Translations under genes and position numbers: made by a program
The notes under the pieces: model-generated
Databases searched by the model: none
What the model was told of the DNA's origin: nothing
Seen by the model: only the letters and a program-made list of their open reading frames with translations
Part shown: one piece after another, positions 18,645 through 26,629 of the stretch
Layout of the letters: each line of letters begins with the position of its first letter
Position numbering within the stretch: the first letter of the stretch is position 1
Assembly (NCBI RefSeq): GCF_009687885.1
Contig: NZ_BLAF01000027.1
Location: 27,428-91,427, forward strand
Source of the DNA: Acrocarpospora pleiomorpha
GTDB lineage: Bacteria > Actinomycetota > Actinomycetes > Streptosporangiales > Streptosporangiaceae
Reading direction: 5' to 3'
DNA: 64,000 nt

Positions 18645-21128
18645 CTACGTGCGCTTCCAGAACGGGCGGCGGGCGCGGGTCGAATCCGGCGGCGCGGGAG
18701 CGTCGGCCGCGCCCCCGGTGAGGCGGCCGAGCAGGTCGACGGCGCGTTGCCAGAGCCGGGCCAGGTCGGCGTCGGCACGCTCGGCCCCTTCCAGCTCGGC
18801 GGCCAGCGACGCCAGGTCGGCGTGGCCGCCCGCCATCTGGTCGATCACCCGCAGGCGGCTGGCCAGGTCGGACAGGTAGCGCCGGCGCTCCTGGTCCGGC
18901 CGTCCGGCCGCCGCGCGCAGCCGGACCAGCTCCTCGGCGAGCAGGGCGCGCACGCTGTCCAGGCTGGGCTGCCGCTCCCGGCCCGGGTGGGGCTTCATCG
19001 GTCCCGGCGCCACGCTCCGTCCGCCGGCCCGGGGTCCCACGCCCGGACCGGGGGACGGGATCGGCGCCGGCGGCGCGCCGGGCGCCTGGGCGAACGGCTG
19101 GGACGGCGTGTCCGGAGCGGGCGTCCGCCGCATCATGCGCGGAGCGGGCGGCGGCGGAGGCGTGGGCGCGCCCGCGCCTCCGCCGCCGAAGGCCTCGTCG
19201 AGGGCGAAGGAGGCCTTCTCCATCCGGAGTGGCGCGGCGGCCGCGACGGCGGACATGTTCATCGGCATCTCCCAGCCGCTGGGCTGCTCGACCGGCTGGA
19301 TCACGTGATGCTGCGGCTTGCCGTCGGCGACCACCCGCGAGTCGACCGCGACGAACGCGGTGAACCGGCACAGCACGCCGAACCGCAGCGAGGTCGCCAC
19401 GATCCGGGCCTCCAGGTCCCGCTCGCCGATCGTGTACCGATCCTCCAGGCGGCGCAGCTCGGCCCGCGCCCAGACCGCCCGCGCGGCGGGCGCGTCGGCC
19501 CCGCGCCCCTCGACCGCGCGCTCCCACGGCTTGCCGTCGGCCATTCCCCGTACGGCGATCGCCGGGTTCTCCCCACGACCCCGGAACCGCCCGGAGACGA
19601 CCAGCGGCACCCCCGGGAAGAGGGAGCCCACATGGGTGAGCGTGTCCTCGACCAGATCGAGGTCCGCGGCGCTCAGGGTGAGGTCGGTGACCAGCGGGGA
19701 GCCGATGCGGCGGTGGATGTGCTCCATCGCCTCGTCCAGCCGGTCCTCCGACTCGACCAGCTCGCACCGGCCGGAGCCGAGCAGGGCCAGCCGCCCGAGG
19801 AACCCCGCGTTGACCGCCCGGTCGATGCCGACGGCGTGGATCCGGATCCCCGAGTCGACGGTGATTTTCGCGCCGACCCGTTCGACGATCTCGTCCTCGT
19901 TGCCGACCTGCCCGTCGGTCACCAGGACCATGACCCGGTCCCGGTTCGGATCCCTTTCCGTGTCGCCGAGCAGCCGGAGCGCTTCCTCCATCGGAGCGAG
20001 GATCTCGGTGCCGCCGCGCGCGTCCAGCCGCGACAGGTGCTCGACCGCGCGGTAACGGTTCCGGTCGGTCGCCGCCACCAGGCCGCCGGTGAACGCCCGG
20101 CTGACGTCGTGGTCGAAGGCCAGCACGGCCAGCCGGTCGTGCGCGGTCAGCGTGTCCACGATCCGGGCGGCGGCGCGCCGGGCGGCGACCATCTTCCAGC
20201 CGGTCATGCTGCCGGAACGGTCGAGCAGCAGCACCACGTCCCGAGGGGCCGGTGCGGCGGCCACGTCCGCCGGGGGAGTCAGGGTGAGCGTGAAGGTGCC
20301 CTCCTGGCCCTCGTCGTCCGGGGTCAGGGCCAGCGACGTGGACGCGTCGAAGGCCAGGCGGAGGATGAAGTCCCGGTCCAGGCGCTCGCCCGGCCGGAGT
20401 TCGACGGTGATGGTCTCGCCGCTGGTCGTGTCCACGGTGTGCAGGCTGGAGCGGATCTCGCGCAGGTCCAGGCCGGCCGGGTCGATGGTGGTGGCCAGCG
20501 ACAGCCGTACGGGATTGGGGAAGCCCGGGAGCAGGACCGGCGGGGTGATGCGGGACGCGTCGGGGACGGCGTCGGTGTCAGGGGCCACGCCGCCGCCGGA
20601 CTGGGCGCCCTCCAGGGGCACGCCAGGGATGTAGCGGGGAGCGACCACCAGCGGGAAGCGGAATTCGGCCGCGCCGTCCTCGTAGGGCAGCGGCTGGCTG
20701 AGCGTCAGCCGGACGGTGACCCGCTCGCCGGGCACGATGTTGCCGACCCGGATGGTGAACACGTCCGGCCGGTCCTCTTCGGCGATCGCCGCCCGCTGAC
20801 CCTGCGCCAGCGCCTGGTCGTAGGCGACCCTGGCCTCGCCACGCTCCTTGAGCAGCCCTTCGACCACCCGGTCGTCGGCCTCCAGGGTGAACTTGGTGAC
20901 CGCGGCCCGGGGCGGGAGCGGGAACACGTAGGTGGCCTCAAGCGAGACGTCGTAGGGATTGCGGAAACCCTGCGCCACCTCCACGCCCGCGGTCAGGCCG
21001 CTGAGGTGCGCGGTCACCGCCACGCTCGCCAGCGGCAGGTTGCCCTTCTCGGTCTCCAGGGCGCCGAACCCGGAGTCGGGCACCGGCGTGTACTCCTCCG
21101 GCCGAAGCGGAGTGATGGGAACGGTCAT
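18645..21128 (-). CDS. VIT and von Willebrand factor A domain protein
   Basis: An 827-residue protein laid out like the inter-alpha-trypsin inhibitor heavy chain. The VIT domain covers residues about 15-145 (from GFGALETEKGNLPLASV through VEVAQGFRNPYD to VRVGNIVPGERV). A VWA domain follows at about 295-465 with the complete MIDAS motif DRSGS at 303-307. The C-terminal third is Pro/Gly/Ala-rich with a final helical region of about 110 residues. No signal peptide or membrane helix is visible, so it is probably cytoplasmic; such proteins act as metal-dependent protein-binding scaffolds. It overlaps the upstream MerR-type gene by four bases (ATGA), so both are translated from one message. Confidence 0.9.
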   Translation of the reverse strand: MTVPITPLRPEEYTPVPDSGFGALETEKGNLPLASVAVTAHLSGLTAGVEVAQGFRNPYDVSLEATYVFPLPPRAAVTKFTLEADDRVVEGLLKERGEARVAYDQALAQGQRAAIAEEDRPDVFTIRVGNIVPGERVTVRLTLSQPLPYEDGAAEFRFPLVVAPRYIPGVPLEGAQSGGGVAPDTDAVPDASRITPPVLLPGFPNPVRLSLATTIDPAGLDLREIRSSLHTVDTTSGETITVELRPGERLDRDFILRLAFDASTSLALTPDDEGQEGTFTLTLTPPADVAAAPAPRDVVLLLDRSGSMTGWKMVAARRAAARIVDTLTAHDRLAVLAFDHDVSRAFTGGLVAATDRNRYRAVEHLSRLDARGGTEILAPMEEALRLLGDTERDPNRDRVMVLVTDGQVGNEDEIVERVGAKITVDSGIRIHAVGIDRAVNAGFLGRLALLGSGRCELVESEDRLDEAMEHIHRRIGSPLVTDLTLSAADLDLVEDTLTHVGSLFPGVPLVVSGRFRGRGENPAIAVRGMADGKPWERAVEGRGADAPAARAVWARAELRRLEDRYTIGERDLEARIVATSLRFGVLCRFTAFVAVDSRVVADGKPQHHVIQPVEQPSGWEMPMNMSAVAAAAPLRMEKASFALDEAFGGGGAGAPTPPPPPAPRMMRRTPAPDTPSQPFAQAPGAPPAPIPSPGPGVGPRAGGRSVAPGPMKPHPGRERQPSLDSVRALLAEELVRLRAAAGRPDQERRRYLSDLASRLRVIDQMAGGHADLASLAAELEGAERADADLARLWQRAVDLLGRLTGGAADAPAPPDSTRARRPFWKRT

Positions 21129-21766
21129 GACGGTGTCCCTTCCGAATTCATGGTGATCAGGCCGAGTTCGCTCAGCGCCGCCAGCAAGGGCTGGGCTGCC
21201 GCCGCCAGCGCGACCAGGTCCGCGTCCGACGGTGCCCGGTCGGCGGCGTCCAGCACCAGAGCCACTCCCGGGGCGATCCGCACGCCGTGAACGCGCGCGG
21301 CGGGCGGCCGTTCGGCGGGAATGCGCTCGACGGGCGGCGGCTCGGCGGGTGGCGCCGGGTCGGAGCGTTCGCCGACGGCGGCCCAGAAGCGGGCGCGGGC
21401 GGGCTCGGGGGAGGAATGTTCAGGCTCGGGGGAGGAATGTTCGGGTTCAGCTGGGTATGGGGAGATGAGGGCGATGCTCTGGAGGGCCGAGTCGGGGGCT
21501 CCGGCCAGCTCGATCTGGATGTCCGCGATCGAGCGACCGGCGGCCTGGCGGCGCTTGATCGCGACGAGTTGCAGCAGGTGACGCGGCCCGTACAGAGCGA
21601 CTCGGCCGCGCCGGGCCAGGGGCGGGTCGAGGAGGCCGATCGTCGCGTACCACCGGATGAGGCGCTCGTTCGGGATGTCCCTGACCCGCCCGTTGACGCG
21701 CGCGTCGGAACCGAGCGCGCCGGCCGCGCGCTCGGCCAGCTCGCCGATGGTCCAGGTCTCGCTCAT
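21125..21766 (-). CDS. MerR-family transcriptional regulator
   Basis: A 213-residue regulator. Residues about 5-80 are a MerR-type winged helix: WTIGELAERA, then RLIRWYATIGLLDPP, RRGRVALYGPRHLLQLVAIKRRQAAG and SIADIQIEL. The spacer between the first helix and the wing is longer than in classical MerR proteins. The C-terminal region is not a known effector domain; it has a short repeated acidic segment (SSPEPEHSSPEP) and a final helix. It is co-transcribed with the VIT/VWA gene. A symmetric pair of palindromes immediately upstream (21777-21801) is a good candidate for its own operator. Confidence 0.88.
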   Translation of the reverse strand: MSETWTIGELAERAAGALGSDARVNGRVRDIPNERLIRWYATIGLLDPPLARRGRVALYGPRHLLQLVAIKRRQAAGRSIADIQIELAGAPDSALQSIALISPYPAEPEHSSPEPEHSSPEPARARFWAAVGERSDPAPPAEPPPVERIPAERPPAARVHGVRIAPGVALVLDAADRAPSDADLVALAAAAQPLLAALSELGLITMNSEGTPS

Positions 21767-21937: not shown

Positions 21938-21958
21938 ATCTCGATGGAAGGAACAAGC

Positions 21959-22426
21959 ATGGCTCCAATTACCAGCCTTCTGACCGCCGAGAACAAGAAG
22001 ATCACCGGGGAGGCGTTGCAGGGTGCCCTGCTCGACCTCCTCGACTTGTCGCTCGTGGGCAAGCAGGCGCACTGGAACCTCACCGGGCGCTTCTTCCGCC
22101 CGATCCACCTGCAGCTCGACGACATCGTCAAGATGGCCAGGAAGACGGCCGACCTCGTCGCCGAGCGGGCCGTCGCCATCGGCGTCAGCCCGGACGGGCG
22201 CGCCACCACGATCGCCAACGACAGCCAGGTGCCGCACCTGGACGCCGGGCCGATCGAGGACGGCAAGGTCATCGCCGCGATGACCGACATCCTGGAGTCG
22301 ATCATCCGGCGGATGCGGAAGCGGATCGACGCCACCGAGCGGCCCGACCCGGTCAGCCAGGATCTCCTCATCGGTCTCACCCGGGACCTGGAGAAGCACC
22401 ACTGGATGATCCAGGCCCAGCGTTAG
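21959..22426 (+). CDS. dps: Dps-family ferritin-like DNA-protection protein
   Basis: A 155-residue protein that forms a dodecameric cage, oxidises and stores iron and protects DNA in stress. The ferroxidase ligands are visible in LSLVGKQAHWNLTG and, 12 residues later, HLQLDDIVKMA; the four-helix ferritin fold extends through LTRDLEKHHWMIQAQ. The length is typical. The start ATG 21959 is preceded by GGAAGGA. A 90-bp inverted-repeat element lies directly upstream and may change its leader or promoter. The stop overlaps the end of the convergent KAP NTPase gene by four bases. Confidence 0.92.
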   Translation: MAPITSLLTAENKKITGEALQGALLDLLDLSLVGKQAHWNLTGRFFRPIHLQLDDIVKMARKTADLVAERAVAIGVSPDGRATTIANDSQVPHLDAGPIEDGKVIAAMTDILESIIRRMRKRIDATERPDPVSQDLLIGLTRDLEKHHWMIQAQR

Positions 22427-25311
22427 AGCAGGCGCCTGGCCAGATCGGCGACCGGAGGGCCGGAGGCGAGCAGCGCCCGGAGAGACGCGCTCGCCTCCGC
22501 CGGTACGCCGACCAGCTGGGCGGTTTCCGCCCACTCGTCCGAGCGTGCGGCCTGTTCCAGCAGGTCGAGCGTAGTCTCCCGGGTCAGCAGGGAGAGCAGT
22601 TGCGGCCAGCGCACGGTGAGCGCCGCCAGCTTGGCCACCTCGGCGTCGCTCGCCGGGCGCTCCCCGGCCAGGCGCTGGCGGTAGGTCACGAACGAGTAGA
22701 AGCGGAACACGTTGACGTAGCGCTTGAGCTCGCGCGGGTTGCTCGCCGACAGGGCGGGCAGCGCCACTTCGATCGCGCGGTAGGCGTTCTCGTCGCTGTA
22801 CAGGTCGTCGAAGACCCGGTCGGCGGCGGCGCGCGTCTCCCGCCACAGCCCGCCCAGCGTCCCCGCGGTCTCGGCGGGCGCGCCGACCACGTGCTGGGTG
22901 GCCCTGGCGATCGAGTCGAGGGTGTCGGCCTGGGGCCGCCGGGCGCGGATCGCGTGCTCGAGCCGGGCCACCAGCTCCTGGTCGAGGTTCTGCGGCTGCT
23001 GCTGCGGCATCCGCATTTCGGACATGCGTGGTGTGTCCGAAATTCCCATCAAGGATCGGACATATGCCGGTAGGCGGGTGTCGTCGGCGAGGAGCGGCAC
23101 TGACAGCGGGAGCTGCACGATCTTCTCCAGGAACCGCCAGCCGATGCCCTGGCGGAGGCTCTCCGGCATCGACTCCGTGAGGTCGCGGTAGGCCAGCTCG
23201 ACGTGGGCGGCCACCACCTCGGGCTCCATGGCCAGCACGAAGACGCAGTCGGGGAACTCCCCGGCCAGGAACAGGTTGATCGCCTCGATCACCTGGGCCA
23301 CGGTGCCGGACGAGCACCGATCCAGGTCGTCCACGAACACCACCAGCGGGCGTTCCTCCGTCGCCACCAGGCCGAGCACGTGGCGCATGTCGGTCTGGAC
23401 CAGGTGCAGGAAGCCGGTCCTGGCGCTGTATCCGGGCTCGGCGAGCAGGTCGCCGGTCTCCGGTGGGGGCGCGAACAGGTCGGGCGGGCGTACCAGGGCG
23501 GTGAAGGCGGTGTCGGCGGATTCGGTGAAGAAACGCGCGAGCCGTACCCAGCCGGTGGCCACCGCGGCCAGCGCGCCCGCCGAGGAGATCGCGGCCGCCG
23601 TGCCCTCCAGGGCCGGGAGCAGCGGCGTGGCCAGCTGGGACGCGCCCGCCAGCAGCAGCGCCATGGCCAGGCCGAGCGCGGCGGGCACCAGGCGCAGCGC
23701 CGCCAGCCGGTAGGCGCGCCGTCGGACCGCCTCCCGATCGATCCTGGCCAGGTTGAGCCGCAGCCAGAAACGTTCCCGCTCGGCCCGGGGCAGCCGCGCG
23801 GTGACCTGGGTGATGATCTCGTGCGCGAGACCGGCCCACACCTGCTCCCCGTTCTGGTACATCCACGGGTTGAACCACACCGTCGGCCGCCACCCGCTCG
23901 CCCCGGACACCGCCTCGGGCGGCGGCTCCGGCGGCCGTTTCGCCCAGTTCCGGACTTCGGCATTGGTCACCCGGTCGGGGCCGGGCCACAGCCGTCCCAC
24001 CAGCCTGAACAGTCGCGACGGTGGCCGGGCCGGCAGCGGCCGGGGCAGCTGGATCGGCCCCGGGTTCCCGGTCGCGGCCCCCGGGTCCAGATCGTTCTGG
24101 ATCATCCGCATCAGCGAGGTCTTGCCGGTGCCCCACGGCCCCTTGATGCCGATCGTCAGCGGCGGCCTGGTCTCCGGATGGCGGACGAACGCGGCGATCG
24201 CCTCCGCGTACACCCGATGCCCGAGGTCGTCGTCGATGGTCCAGCGGTCGGGGGTGAGCCGGGCCCGGGGCTGCACGGTCCGGCGGCCGGCCCGCCACCG
24301 GCGCAGCACGCCGGGCACCTCGTCGAGCTCGGCCGCCGTGAGCCGGGCCCGCCCGGCCTCCGCCACGCTCGGATGCGCGAACGGCGTGCCCGTGCCGAGC
24401 AGCCGCCACTCGGCCAGTTCGGCCCGCGCCTCCGGGCGGCCGGTCAGCAGCCCGGCCACCTCCGGCGTCAGCTCCTCGTCGTCGGCCAGCAGCGAGCCGC
24501 GCCGCAGCAGCGCCTGGGCGTCCGCGCCCAGATACTCGTCGTACACCATGCCGACCAGCCGCTCGGCGGACGGGGGATGGCCGCCCACCCGGTCGCGGGC
24601 GGGCGCGAGCTCGGGCGGGATGCCGGAGCCGGGGGCGGGCGGGGTGAGCGCGACCGCGATCTCCAGGCCCTCGGCCGAGGTGAGCAGGTGCGGCTGGAAC
24701 TCGGCGTGCTCGCCGAACACGGCCAGCGCGTGCGCCAGCAGGTCGCCGACCGAGATCACCCCGTCCCGGTCCAGGTCGGTGGCGCCGTCGAGCAGGCCGG
24801 TGGCCACCACCTCGGTCAGCGAGAGGCCGCCGGGCCGCACCTCCGCGCCGATGGCGAGGCCCGTGGTGAGGGCGGCGGCGGCCACGCCCGGCGGGGTGAG
24901 CAGGGTGCTGACCGTGGAATCGTCCGCGGCGGCGCCGCCGATCCAGCCGAAGTCGACCACCATCAGCAGTGCCGAAGCCGCCGAATCCCCGGCCCTGGCG
25001 CCGAAGCCGCGGATCAGCGTGGTGAAGTCGCTGCCGCTCCACAGCGCCGTGCGCGGCCAGCGCACCAGCAGCAGGTCGCCGGGCGCGCCCTCGGCCAGGA
25101 AGGTGCTCAGCCGCTGGTGGTCCCGGCTGTCCAGGCTCTGCGGCGCGTCCACCTCGAACCCGCAGGAGCGCAGCGCGCTCACCAGTCGCCGCGCCGGTTC
25201 CGGGGCACGCCGGCCGGGCTCGTCGGGGTCGAGGAAGACCAGCGCCTTCCGCCTGGTGATGGTGGGCGCGCTGGTCCTGTCGGTGATGGCGCTAGTCATC
25301 TCGGCGATCAC
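22423..25311 (-). CDS. KAP-family P-loop NTPase with degenerate caspase-like N-terminus
   Basis: A 962-residue protein. The KAP NTPase domain has Walker A GPWGTGKT at residues 391-398 and Walker B VVFVDDLDRC at 657-666; between them lie hydrophobic helices at about 541-590, the membrane insert characteristic of KAP NTPases, so the protein is probably anchored with its ATPase in the cytoplasm. Residues about 20-225 resemble actinobacterial caspase-like (C14) domains: the strand-rich start, an EF-hand-like loop DLDRDGVISVGD at 179-190 and the closing strand LEIAVAL. The usual catalytic SGHG and DCCxSG positions read WPRT and DFGWIGG, so both catalytic residues seem lost. Start choice between GTG 25311 and ATG 25299 is open; neither has a good ribosome site. 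KAP proteins include phage-exclusion factors; a defence role is inference. Confidence 0.85.
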   Translation of the reverse strand: MIAEMTSAITDRTSAPTITRRKALVFLDPDEPGRRAPEPARRLVSALRSCGFEVDAPQSLDSRDHQRLSTFLAEGAPGDLLLVRWPRTALWSGSDFTTLIRGFGARAGDSAASALLMVVDFGWIGGAAADDSTVSTLLTPPGVAAAALTTGLAIGAEVRPGGLSLTEVVATGLLDGATDLDRDGVISVGDLLAHALAVFGEHAEFQPHLLTSAEGLEIAVALTPPAPGSGIPPELAPARDRVGGHPPSAERLVGMVYDEYLGADAQALLRRGSLLADDEELTPEVAGLLTGRPEARAELAEWRLLGTGTPFAHPSVAEAGRARLTAAELDEVPGVLRRWRAGRRTVQPRARLTPDRWTIDDDLGHRVYAEAIAAFVRHPETRPPLTIGIKGPWGTGKTSLMRMIQNDLDPGAATGNPGPIQLPRPLPARPPSRLFRLVGRLWPGPDRVTNAEVRNWAKRPPEPPPEAVSGASGWRPTVWFNPWMYQNGEQVWAGLAHEIITQVTARLPRAERERFWLRLNLARIDREAVRRRAYRLAALRLVPAALGLAMALLLAGASQLATPLLPALEGTAAAISSAGALAAVATGWVRLARFFTESADTAFTALVRPPDLFAPPPETGDLLAEPGYSARTGFLHLVQTDMRHVLGLVATEERPLVVFVDDLDRCSSGTVAQVIEAINLFLAGEFPDCVFVLAMEPEVVAAHVELAYRDLTESMPESLRQGIGWRFLEKIVQLPLSVPLLADDTRLPAYVRSLMGISDTPRMSEMRMPQQQPQNLDQELVARLEHAIRARRPQADTLDSIARATQHVVGAPAETAGTLGGLWRETRAAADRVFDDLYSDENAYRAIEVALPALSASNPRELKRYVNVFRFYSFVTYRQRLAGERPASDAEVAKLAALTVRWPQLLSLLTRETTLDLLEQAARSDEWAETAQLVGVPAEASASLRALLASGPPVADLARRLL

Positions 25312-25453: not shown

Positions 25454-26629
25454 ATGTTGCGCCGCACGTTCGTCCGCTCGGGGGCCCTGGCCGCGCTCAC
25501 CGGCTCACTCTGGCGGTCCGCCTGCGCGGCGCCCGCCCCCGCCGCCACGCCTTCGGCCGTCCCGACGCCCACTCCCTCGGCGGCGGCTCGCGCGGCCGTA
25601 CGCGGCAAGGGGCCTTACGGCGCGCTGGCCAAACCCGACAAGAACGCCATCGCCCTGGCGGAAGGTTTCACCAGCCGGGTGGTCGGCCGTTCCGGGCAGC
25701 GCGTCGGCGGCCTGACCTGGCATCCCGCCCCCGACGGCGGGGCCTGCTTCGCCGACGGCGACGGCTGGATCTACGTCTCCAACTCCGAGGTCCCCGTGGT
25801 CGGCGGCGTCTCCGCGCTCCGCTTCGGGCCCGACGGCACGATCAAGACGGGCTATCGCATCCTGTCCGGCACCGACCGGAACTGCGCCGGGGGCGCGACC
25901 CCGTGGAACACCTGGCTGTCCTGCGAGGAGACCGTCCGCGGGCGCGTCTTCGAATGCGATCCGTACGGCTACCGCGCCGCCGCCCCCCGCCTCGCCATGG
26001 GCCGCTTCAAGCACGAGGCCGCCGCCTGCGACCCCGACCGTGAGGTCGTCTACCTGACCGAGGACGAGCCGGACGGCTGCTTCTACCGGTTCCGCCCGGA
26101 GGACTGGGGCGATCTGACCACCGGCGTCCTGGAGGTCATGGTCGGCGACGGCCCAGGGTCTGTCCGGTGGCGGCGCATCCCCAACCCGTCCGCGTCGTAC
26201 GAACCCACCCGCGACCAGGTCGAGGACGCGATCCGCTTCAACGGCGGCGAAGGCTGCTACTACTCGGGCGGCTTCTGCTACTTCACCACCAAAGGCGACA
26301 ACCGCGTCTGGGCCTACGACGCCGCCGCCCGCGAGCTCTCCATCCTCTACGACGCCAACGCCCCCCTCAAAGGCGTCGACAACGTGTACGTCTCCCGCTC
26401 CGGCGACCTGTTCGTGGCCGAGGACGGCGGCAACATGGAGATCAACATCATCACCGCCGACGGCGAGGTCGCCCCGTTCCTCCGTCTGGTCGGCCACGGC
26501 AGATCCGAGATCACCGGCCTGGCCTTCGCCCCGGACGGCGACCGCCTCTACTTCTCCTCCCAGCGCGGCACCACCGGCTCCAACCGCTCCGGCGTCACCT
26601 ACGAGGTCACCGGCCCGTTCCGCACCTGA
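25454..26629 (+). CDS. PhoX-like (DUF839) exported protein
   Basis: A 391-residue protein. The N-terminus MLRRTFVRSGALAALTG has a twin-arginine-like signal, consistent with export of a folded, metal-containing protein by Tat. After a Pro/Ala-rich linker, the body contains a propeller-type fold with PhoX-family segments such as GGATPWNTWLSCEETV, RFKHEAAACDP and FNGGEGCYYSGG; the acidic and Arg/Lys residues of these segments bind calcium and iron in PhoX phosphatases. Phosphatase activity is therefore likely but not certain, as short DUF839 proteins are often uncharacterised. GGGAGGAGATT before ATG 25454 is a strong ribosome site. Confidence 0.85.
   Translation: MLRRTFVRSGALAALTGSLWRSACAAPAPAATPSAVPTPTPSAAARAAVRGKGPYGALAKPDKNAIALAEGFTSRVVGRSGQRVGGLTWHPAPDGGACFADGDGWIYVSNSEVPVVGGVSALRFGPDGTIKTGYRILSGTDRNCAGGATPWNTWLSCEETVRGRVFECDPYGYRAAAPRLAMGRFKHEAAACDPDREVVYLTEDEPDGCFYRFRPEDWGDLTTGVLEVMVGDGPGSVRWRRIPNPSASYEPTRDQVEDAIRFNGGEGCYYSGGFCYFTTKGDNRVWAYDAAARELSILYDANAPLKGVDNVYVSRSGDLFVAEDGGNMEINIITADGEVAPFLRLVGHGRSEITGLAFAPDGDRLYFSSQRGTTGSNRSGVTYEVTGPFRT

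What the first reader, a model, noticed from the sequence alone, without database searches (positions are those of the whole stretch)
22423..25311. Pseudo-caspase fused to a membrane KAP NTPase
The N-terminal ~200 residues have the strand pattern, EF-hand loop (DLDRDGVISVGD) and closing strand of actinobacterial caspase-like domains, but the catalytic His and Cys motifs are replaced (WPRT, DFGWIGG). It is followed by a complete KAP ATPase with membrane insert. Active caspase-NTPase fusions are linked to programmed death and phage defence; an inactive one could be a sensor, a decoy or a regulator of an active paralogue.
Basis: partly seen in the sequence, partly recalled or inferred. Interest (0 to 1): 0.6.

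Follow-up and report, generated by a model that had tools for sequence, protein, structure and literature searches.

The report
Dead caspase fused to membrane ATPase
A soil actinobacterium and its relatives carry, at a fixed chromosomal site, a protein whose front end is a caspase that has lost its cutting machinery, joined to a membrane-embedded ATPase switch; because the former active site is rebuilt rather than decayed, it probably senses or binds something instead of cutting.

Summary
The minus-strand ORF at 22423-25311 (962 aa) joins an N-terminal caspase fold to a complete KAP NTPase with a membrane insert. Pfam and NCBIfam do not detect the caspase part. A 19-sequence AlphaFold2 model (pLDDT 81) matches metacaspases, MALT1, caspases and c-FLIP (Z about 14), and profile-profile alignment to active actinobacterial caspases scores 101 against at most 20 for controls. 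Catalysis is lost: the His loop is exactly 16 residues shorter than in all 17 active relatives, and the catalytic Cys is Gly. The site has not decayed: D28, R84 and D-F-G-W (120-123) are invariant in up to 34 distinct domains, at the ends of strands 1, 3 and 4. The gene is single-copy in 28 of 150 family genomes, vertically inherited between Dps and PhoX-like genes, which lie adjacent in relatives lacking it. Of 27 other carriers, 13 have no detectable active caspase, so an obligate 'regulator of an active paralogue' is unlikely. Most likely it is a non-proteolytic binding or sensor module on an ATP-driven, membrane-anchored, STAND-like switch. Phage defence is possible but untested; the stable locus is unlike a defence island. 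New variant of a known kind.

The parts
22423..25311 (-). Whole gene, 962 aa from GTG 25311; likely true start ATG 25299
   Evidence: open frame; orthologues align from residue 5
24640..25251 (-). Pseudo-caspase domain, residues 21-224
   Evidence: AF2 model and fold searches; hhalign with controls
25228..25230 (-). D28, invariant (33/33) just after strand 1
25060..25062 (-). R84, invariant (34/34) at the end of strand 3, where the deleted catalytic-His loop began
24943..24954 (-). DFGW motif, residues 120-123, invariant (34/34), in place of D-C-C-[YFN] of active caspases; catalytic Cys is Gly122
24742..24777 (-). EF-hand-like loop DLDRDGVISVGD, residues 179-190, shared with active relatives, lost in some members
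24286..24567 (-). Helical linker, residues 249-342, possible STAND winged-helix domain
   Evidence: high local pLDDT; 22.9 bits to the segment after NB-ARC in L048, best of 1000 shuffles 14.4; only 13.1 bits in L046
22699..24213 (-). KAP P-loop NTPase, residues 367-871
   Evidence: PF07693, 104.9 bits
24118..24141 (-). Walker A GPWGTGKT, residues 391-398
   Evidence: GKT conserved in all aligned family members
23317..23343 (-). Walker B VVFVDDLDR, residues 657-665
   Evidence: conserved in all aligned family members
23524..23736 (-). Membrane insert between Walker A and B: helices 526-561 and 566-596
   Evidence: 19-residue hydropathy above 1.6 only for windows starting at 535-544; second segment weaker; helices in model
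21944..22426 (+). Dps/ferritin-like gene, conserved convergent neighbour; overlaps the KAP gene end by 4 bases
   Evidence: PF00210; synteny
25454..26629 (+). PhoX-like gene, conserved divergent neighbour
   Evidence: PF05787; synteny

Best explanation
Shown: the protein is a vertically inherited, single-copy fusion of a caspase-fold pseudoprotease, a helical (possibly winged-helix) linker and a KAP NTPase with a membrane insert. Inferred: the pseudo-caspase no longer cuts. Its former active-site face, rebuilt around D28, R84 and D120-F-G-W123, binds a protein, peptide or small ligand. Binding is relayed through the linker to the KAP NTPase, which changes its nucleotide state or its oligomerisation at the membrane and so sends the signal or does the damage itself. 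It would work like a STAND/NLR-type switch in which a non-catalytic caspase fold occupies the sensor or adaptor end. Whether the signal is phage infection, damage or a developmental cue in the hyphae is not known.
For: Caspase fold and homology. Catalytic His loop deleted and Cys replaced in every member, yet D28, R84 and DFGW invariant in 33 to 34 distinct domains, at the C-terminal ends of strands 1, 3 and 4, where caspases hold their active site. dN/dS below 1 over the domain in all 12 pairs tested, 0.06-0.57. Walker A and B conserved. The same KAP subfamily carries other N-terminal modules elsewhere: NB-ARC in Actinomadura, Clp_N in Rhizobium, as in switch proteins with exchangeable ends. 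All 28 pseudo-caspase hits lie in ORFs of 942-1461 aa, none standalone. Published precedent: inactive caspase domains in bacterial conflict systems were proposed to be dominant-negative or peptide-binding (PMC7159879), and KAP can take the place of STAND NTPases (PMC8195603).
Against: No ligand, ATPase or localisation data. The full-length model is of low confidence (pTM 0.43) and gave no useful fold match, so the relay between domains is inference. The winged-helix assignment is weak. The invariant residues could be structural rather than ligand-binding. Only one membrane segment is clearly hydrophobic.
Confidence: 0.45

Rival explanations
1. The pseudo-caspase is a decoy, dominant-negative partner or allosteric activator of an active caspase in the same cell, as c-FLIP is for caspase-8.
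For: The model aligns with c-FLIPL (Z 13.8). The window's genome has three loci with Pfam C14 hits whose translations keep His and Cys motifs.
Against: 13 of 27 other carriers have no Pfam C14 caspase. None of the neighbouring genes tested in the window is a caspase. Diverged caspases could be missed, as this one is by Pfam.
Confidence: 0.15
2. The rebuilt site is a new enzyme active site: the D28/R84/D120 set on the caspase scaffold carries out a different reaction.
For: Charged residues invariant across divergent sequences at strand ends on the old active-site face.
Against: No His or Cys is invariant and the only nearly invariant Ser is S164 (32/34); an Arg-Asp pair with aromatics equally suits binding or a salt bridge.
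Confidence: 0.12
3. The domain is only a scaffold for oligomerisation or for placing the KAP domain, with the invariant residues holding the truncated fold together.
For: Deletion of 16 residues needs compensation; F121, W123 and the AA-LT strand look structural.
Against: R84 and D28 are charged and stay invariant while most other positions vary.
Confidence: 0.23
4. The domain is a decaying remnant without function.
For: No catalysis; EF loop lost in some members.
Against: dN/dS 0.06-0.57 and invariant residues over several genera; domain kept in frame with the NTPase in every carrier.
Confidence: 0.03

Closest known systems
Actinobacterial N-terminal caspases with variable C-terminal domains (EACC1 two-gene system type, PMC7159879)
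   Same: Active actinobacterial caspases of this general type are homologous over 181 columns; same EF-hand-like loop and closing helix; caspase at the N-terminus with variable C-terminal partners; membrane association
   Different: No catalytic dyad; 16-residue His-loop deletion; the gene immediately upstream is a divergent PhoX-like gene, not EACC1; partner is KAP; fixed chromosomal site
Pseudo-orthocaspases (PMC6426788; typically Tyr-Ser or similar in place of His-Cys)
   Same: p20 caspase fold without catalytic dyad
   Different: Those are found with a p20 profile, mostly in Alphaproteobacteria and Cyanobacteria, only 3 of 636 actinobacterial sequences; here the Pfam profile finds nothing, the His loop is deleted and the motif is DFGW
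KAP NTPases of phage defence: PifA, QatA, Tmn
   Same: KAP NTPase with Walker motifs; Tmn also with membrane segments (PMC11846954)
   Different: QatA 93.8 bits against cut-off 600, best stretches near the NTPase motifs; pseudo-caspase N-terminus; single gene at a stable site
c-FLIP
   Same: Catalytically dead caspase fold (Z 13.8)
   Different: Here fused to an NTPase; no obligate active caspase partner seen; no kinship beyond the shared superfamily fold shown

Membership tests
Peptidase C14 (caspase) superfamily, by descent | Caspase fold | tested here: met
Peptidase C14 (caspase) superfamily, by descent | Sequence homology to active members | tested here: met
   hhalign 101, controls at most 20.4; without the EF part 38.6 against 20.3
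Peptidase C14 (active peptidase) | Catalytic His-Cys dyad | tested here: not met
   His loop deleted, Cys to Gly in all members
Peptidase C14 (active peptidase) | Pfam PF00656 hit above cut-off | tested here: not met
   no hit in any of 19 members
Pseudo-orthocaspase (PMC6426788) | p20 domain found by the p20 profile, with dyad substitution | tested here: inconclusive
   dyad lost (met), but Pfam C14 finds nothing and the His loop is deleted; the paper's own p20 profile was not available
KAP P-loop NTPase | PF07693 above cut-off, Walker A and B | tested here: met
   104.9 bits against 20; motifs conserved
KAP P-loop NTPase | Transmembrane segments inserted in the NTPase domain | tested here: met
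   one clear hydrophobic segment and a weaker second, between Walker A and B
EACC1-caspase two-gene system | Adjacent 5' EACC1 gene | tested here: not met
   upstream gene is a divergent PhoX-like gene, downstream a convergent Dps gene
Qat phage-defence system | QatA above curated cut-off | tested here: not met
   93.8 against 600 bits
STAND/NLR NTPases | NB-ARC/NACHT NTPase domain | tested here: not met
   no NB-ARC or NACHT hit in the query
STAND/NLR NTPases | Winged helix after the NTPase domain | tested here: inconclusive
   weak similarity of residues 249-342 to the segment after NB-ARC in L048
Anti-phage defence gene | Protection in phage challenge | not testable with these tools
   needs a deletion strain

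The most novel reading that the evidence does not exclude
A caspase scaffold was turned into a ligand receptor: a 16-residue deletion removed the catalytic loop, a new invariant pocket (D28, R84, DFGW) took its place, and the receptor was fixed once, on a membrane KAP switch, in an actinobacterial family, where it works as an NLR-like sensor without any caspase.
Probability: 0.3. Interest if true: 0.75.

Novelty: new variant of a known kind. Interest (0 to 1): 0.48.

Why it matters
Pseudo-caspases in bacteria have been counted with profiles that may not see this family (only 3 in Actinobacteria in one census, PMC6426788), so their number is probably too low. A caspase fold kept for long without catalysis, and in about half the carriers without a detectable active caspase, would show that the fold has a binding role of its own, and would add a membrane NTPase to the list of switches that use death-related domains.

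Tried and rejected
Pfam, NCBIfam and PDB sequence searches with the N-terminal domain gave no caspase hit, only EF-hand and unrelated weak matches: taken as limited sensitivity, because fold and profile-profile tests are clear. The class-wide search with the domain found, beyond the carriers, mostly short matches around the EF-hand region of active caspases. A class-wide search with the KAP part at a strict E-value found only the window itself, and one such search failed. The full-length model was of low confidence and its fold search uninformative. A STAND winged helix in the linker is only suggestive. Decay and assembly artefact rejected: the fusion is present in 28 genomes. A direct fusion of an active caspase to KAP was not seen, but the search was not exhaustive. 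The search with the vWA neighbour failed and was replaced by the PhoX-like gene. Literature searches found no paper on a caspase-KAP fusion in the open library held.

Full report
What is there. The window lies in a genome of 11.8 Mb. Its closest named relatives are Acrocarpospora, of the Streptosporangiaceae. The ORF at 22423-25311 is on the minus strand and is open over 962 codons. The KAP NTPase (PF07693) is found at 104.9 bits over residues 367-871, with Walker A at 391-398, Walker B at 657-665 and a hydrophobic stretch between them.

Is the N-terminus a caspase? Simple profile searches say nothing: none of 19 members hits Peptidase_C14 in Pfam or a caspase model in NCBIfam. Three stronger tests agree that it is. 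The AF2 model of residues 1-224 from a 19-sequence alignment has pLDDT 81.3 and pTM 0.81, with the strand and helix order of caspases. Foldseek against the PDB lists metacaspases, MALT1 and caspases first, best E 5.6e-5, and VIA-align gives Z 14.8 to MALT1 and 13.8 to c-FLIPL. Profile-profile alignment with 17 active actinobacterial caspases covers 181 columns with score 101; the reversed alignment gives 20.4, 20 column-shuffled ones at most 20, and the KAP alignment 16.6; without the EF-hand part the score is 38.6 against 20.3. The hhalign E-value is for one pair, not for a database, so the controls carry the argument.

How it lost catalysis. All 17 active relatives have 57 residues between the column of D79 and the D of D-C-C; all 19 members of this family have 41. 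In the alignment the missing 16 residues are the loop that carries the catalytic His. The D-C-C-[YFN] motif reads D-F-G-W, with Gly at the catalytic Cys. Over 34 distinct domains, D120, F121, G122, W123 and R84 never change (34/34), nor does D28 (33/33); the most divergent member (L092) has lost the EF loop yet keeps DFGW. In the model D28, R84 and D120 lie at the C-terminal ends of strands 1, 3 and 4, the edge at which caspases hold their active site (established knowledge of the family). dN/dS over the domain is 0.06-0.57 in 12 pairs (Nei-Gojobori, not corrected for the high G+C content). The site is therefore remodelled and kept, not decayed.

Distribution and history. The domain occurs in 28 of 150 genomes of the family, in 9 of 68 genera, one copy each, in ORFs of 942-1461 aa. 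Beyond the carriers, mostly short matches around the EF-hand region of active caspases were seen. In Acrocarpospora, Streptosporangium, Microtetraspora, Sphaerisporangium and Nonomuraea the gene is flanked by the same chromosomal genes in most loci: Dps, MerR and VIT-vWA on one side, PhoX-like, MarR-GNAT, lactonase, FGGY kinase and PFK on the other. In five relatives without it (L155, L156, L163, L164, L165) the Dps and PhoX-like genes lie next to each other. Trees of the pseudo-caspase and of the KAP part each hold the genera together. This fits one fusion, one locus and vertical descent with loss, or one gain. Phage records show no match, and no plasmid place covers 80% of the query.

Relation to active caspases. 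The window's genome has three Pfam C14 loci and a further truncated caspase fragment at C30. Among 27 other carriers, 14 have a Pfam C14 match and 13 have none; five of these had no candidate even in the loose first look. An obligate active partner is thus unlikely, with the caveat that a profile which misses this family could miss others.

Modular relatives. KAP proteins of the same subfamily have NB-ARC in Actinomadura (L046, L048), Clp_N in a Rhizobium plasmid protein (L105), and in Amycolatopsis (L047) an N-terminus without a Pfam hit that to my eye resembles TIR. The linker 249-342 is helical with high local confidence and resembles the segment after NB-ARC in L048 (22.9 bits; best of 1000 shuffles 14.4), less so in L046 (13.1 bits). 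It may be the winged helix of a STAND protein; this is suggestive only.

Mechanism. The best reading is a membrane-anchored, ATP-driven switch whose sensor or adaptor end is a caspase fold that binds but does not cut. Shown: the domains, loss of the catalytic residues, conservation of the rebuilt site, conservation of the NTPase motifs. Inferred: binding at the rebuilt site, relay through the linker, effect at the membrane. Published work proposes that inactive caspase domains in related conflict systems are peptide-binding or dominant-negative (PMC7159879), that KAP can stand in for STAND NTPases (PMC8195603), and that a KAP protein with two membrane segments, Tmn, is a phage-defence system (PMC11846954). 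Defence is therefore plausible, but the stable locus is unlike a defence island and nothing here tests it.

Novelty. Pseudo-orthocaspases are known, but that census found 3 in 636 actinobacterial sequences and describes substitutions of the dyad (PMC6426788). I found no paper on a caspase-KAP fusion in the open library searched; subscription papers were not covered. I rate it a new variant of a known kind.

Noticed in passing
window 18645-21766: VIT-vWA protein (827 aa) whose gene overlaps that of a MerR-type regulator, conserved next to Dps across the family.
   Followed up: partly
L064 (window genome C30:118100-118225): Caspase gene fragment that keeps the C-terminal half with the EF-hand loop but lacks the His/Cys half; the reading upstream does not continue the caspase.
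   Followed up: partly
L046:6528-10094, L048:6516-10124: Actinomadura proteins with two P-loop NTPase domains in one chain, NB-ARC followed by KAP.
   Followed up: partly
L047:6786-9995: Amycolatopsis KAP protein with an N-terminus that looks TIR-like by eye but has no Pfam hit.
   Followed up: no
L105:5044-7962: Rhizobium plasmid KAP protein with Clp_N and a macro-domain-like N-terminus by eye.
   Followed up: no
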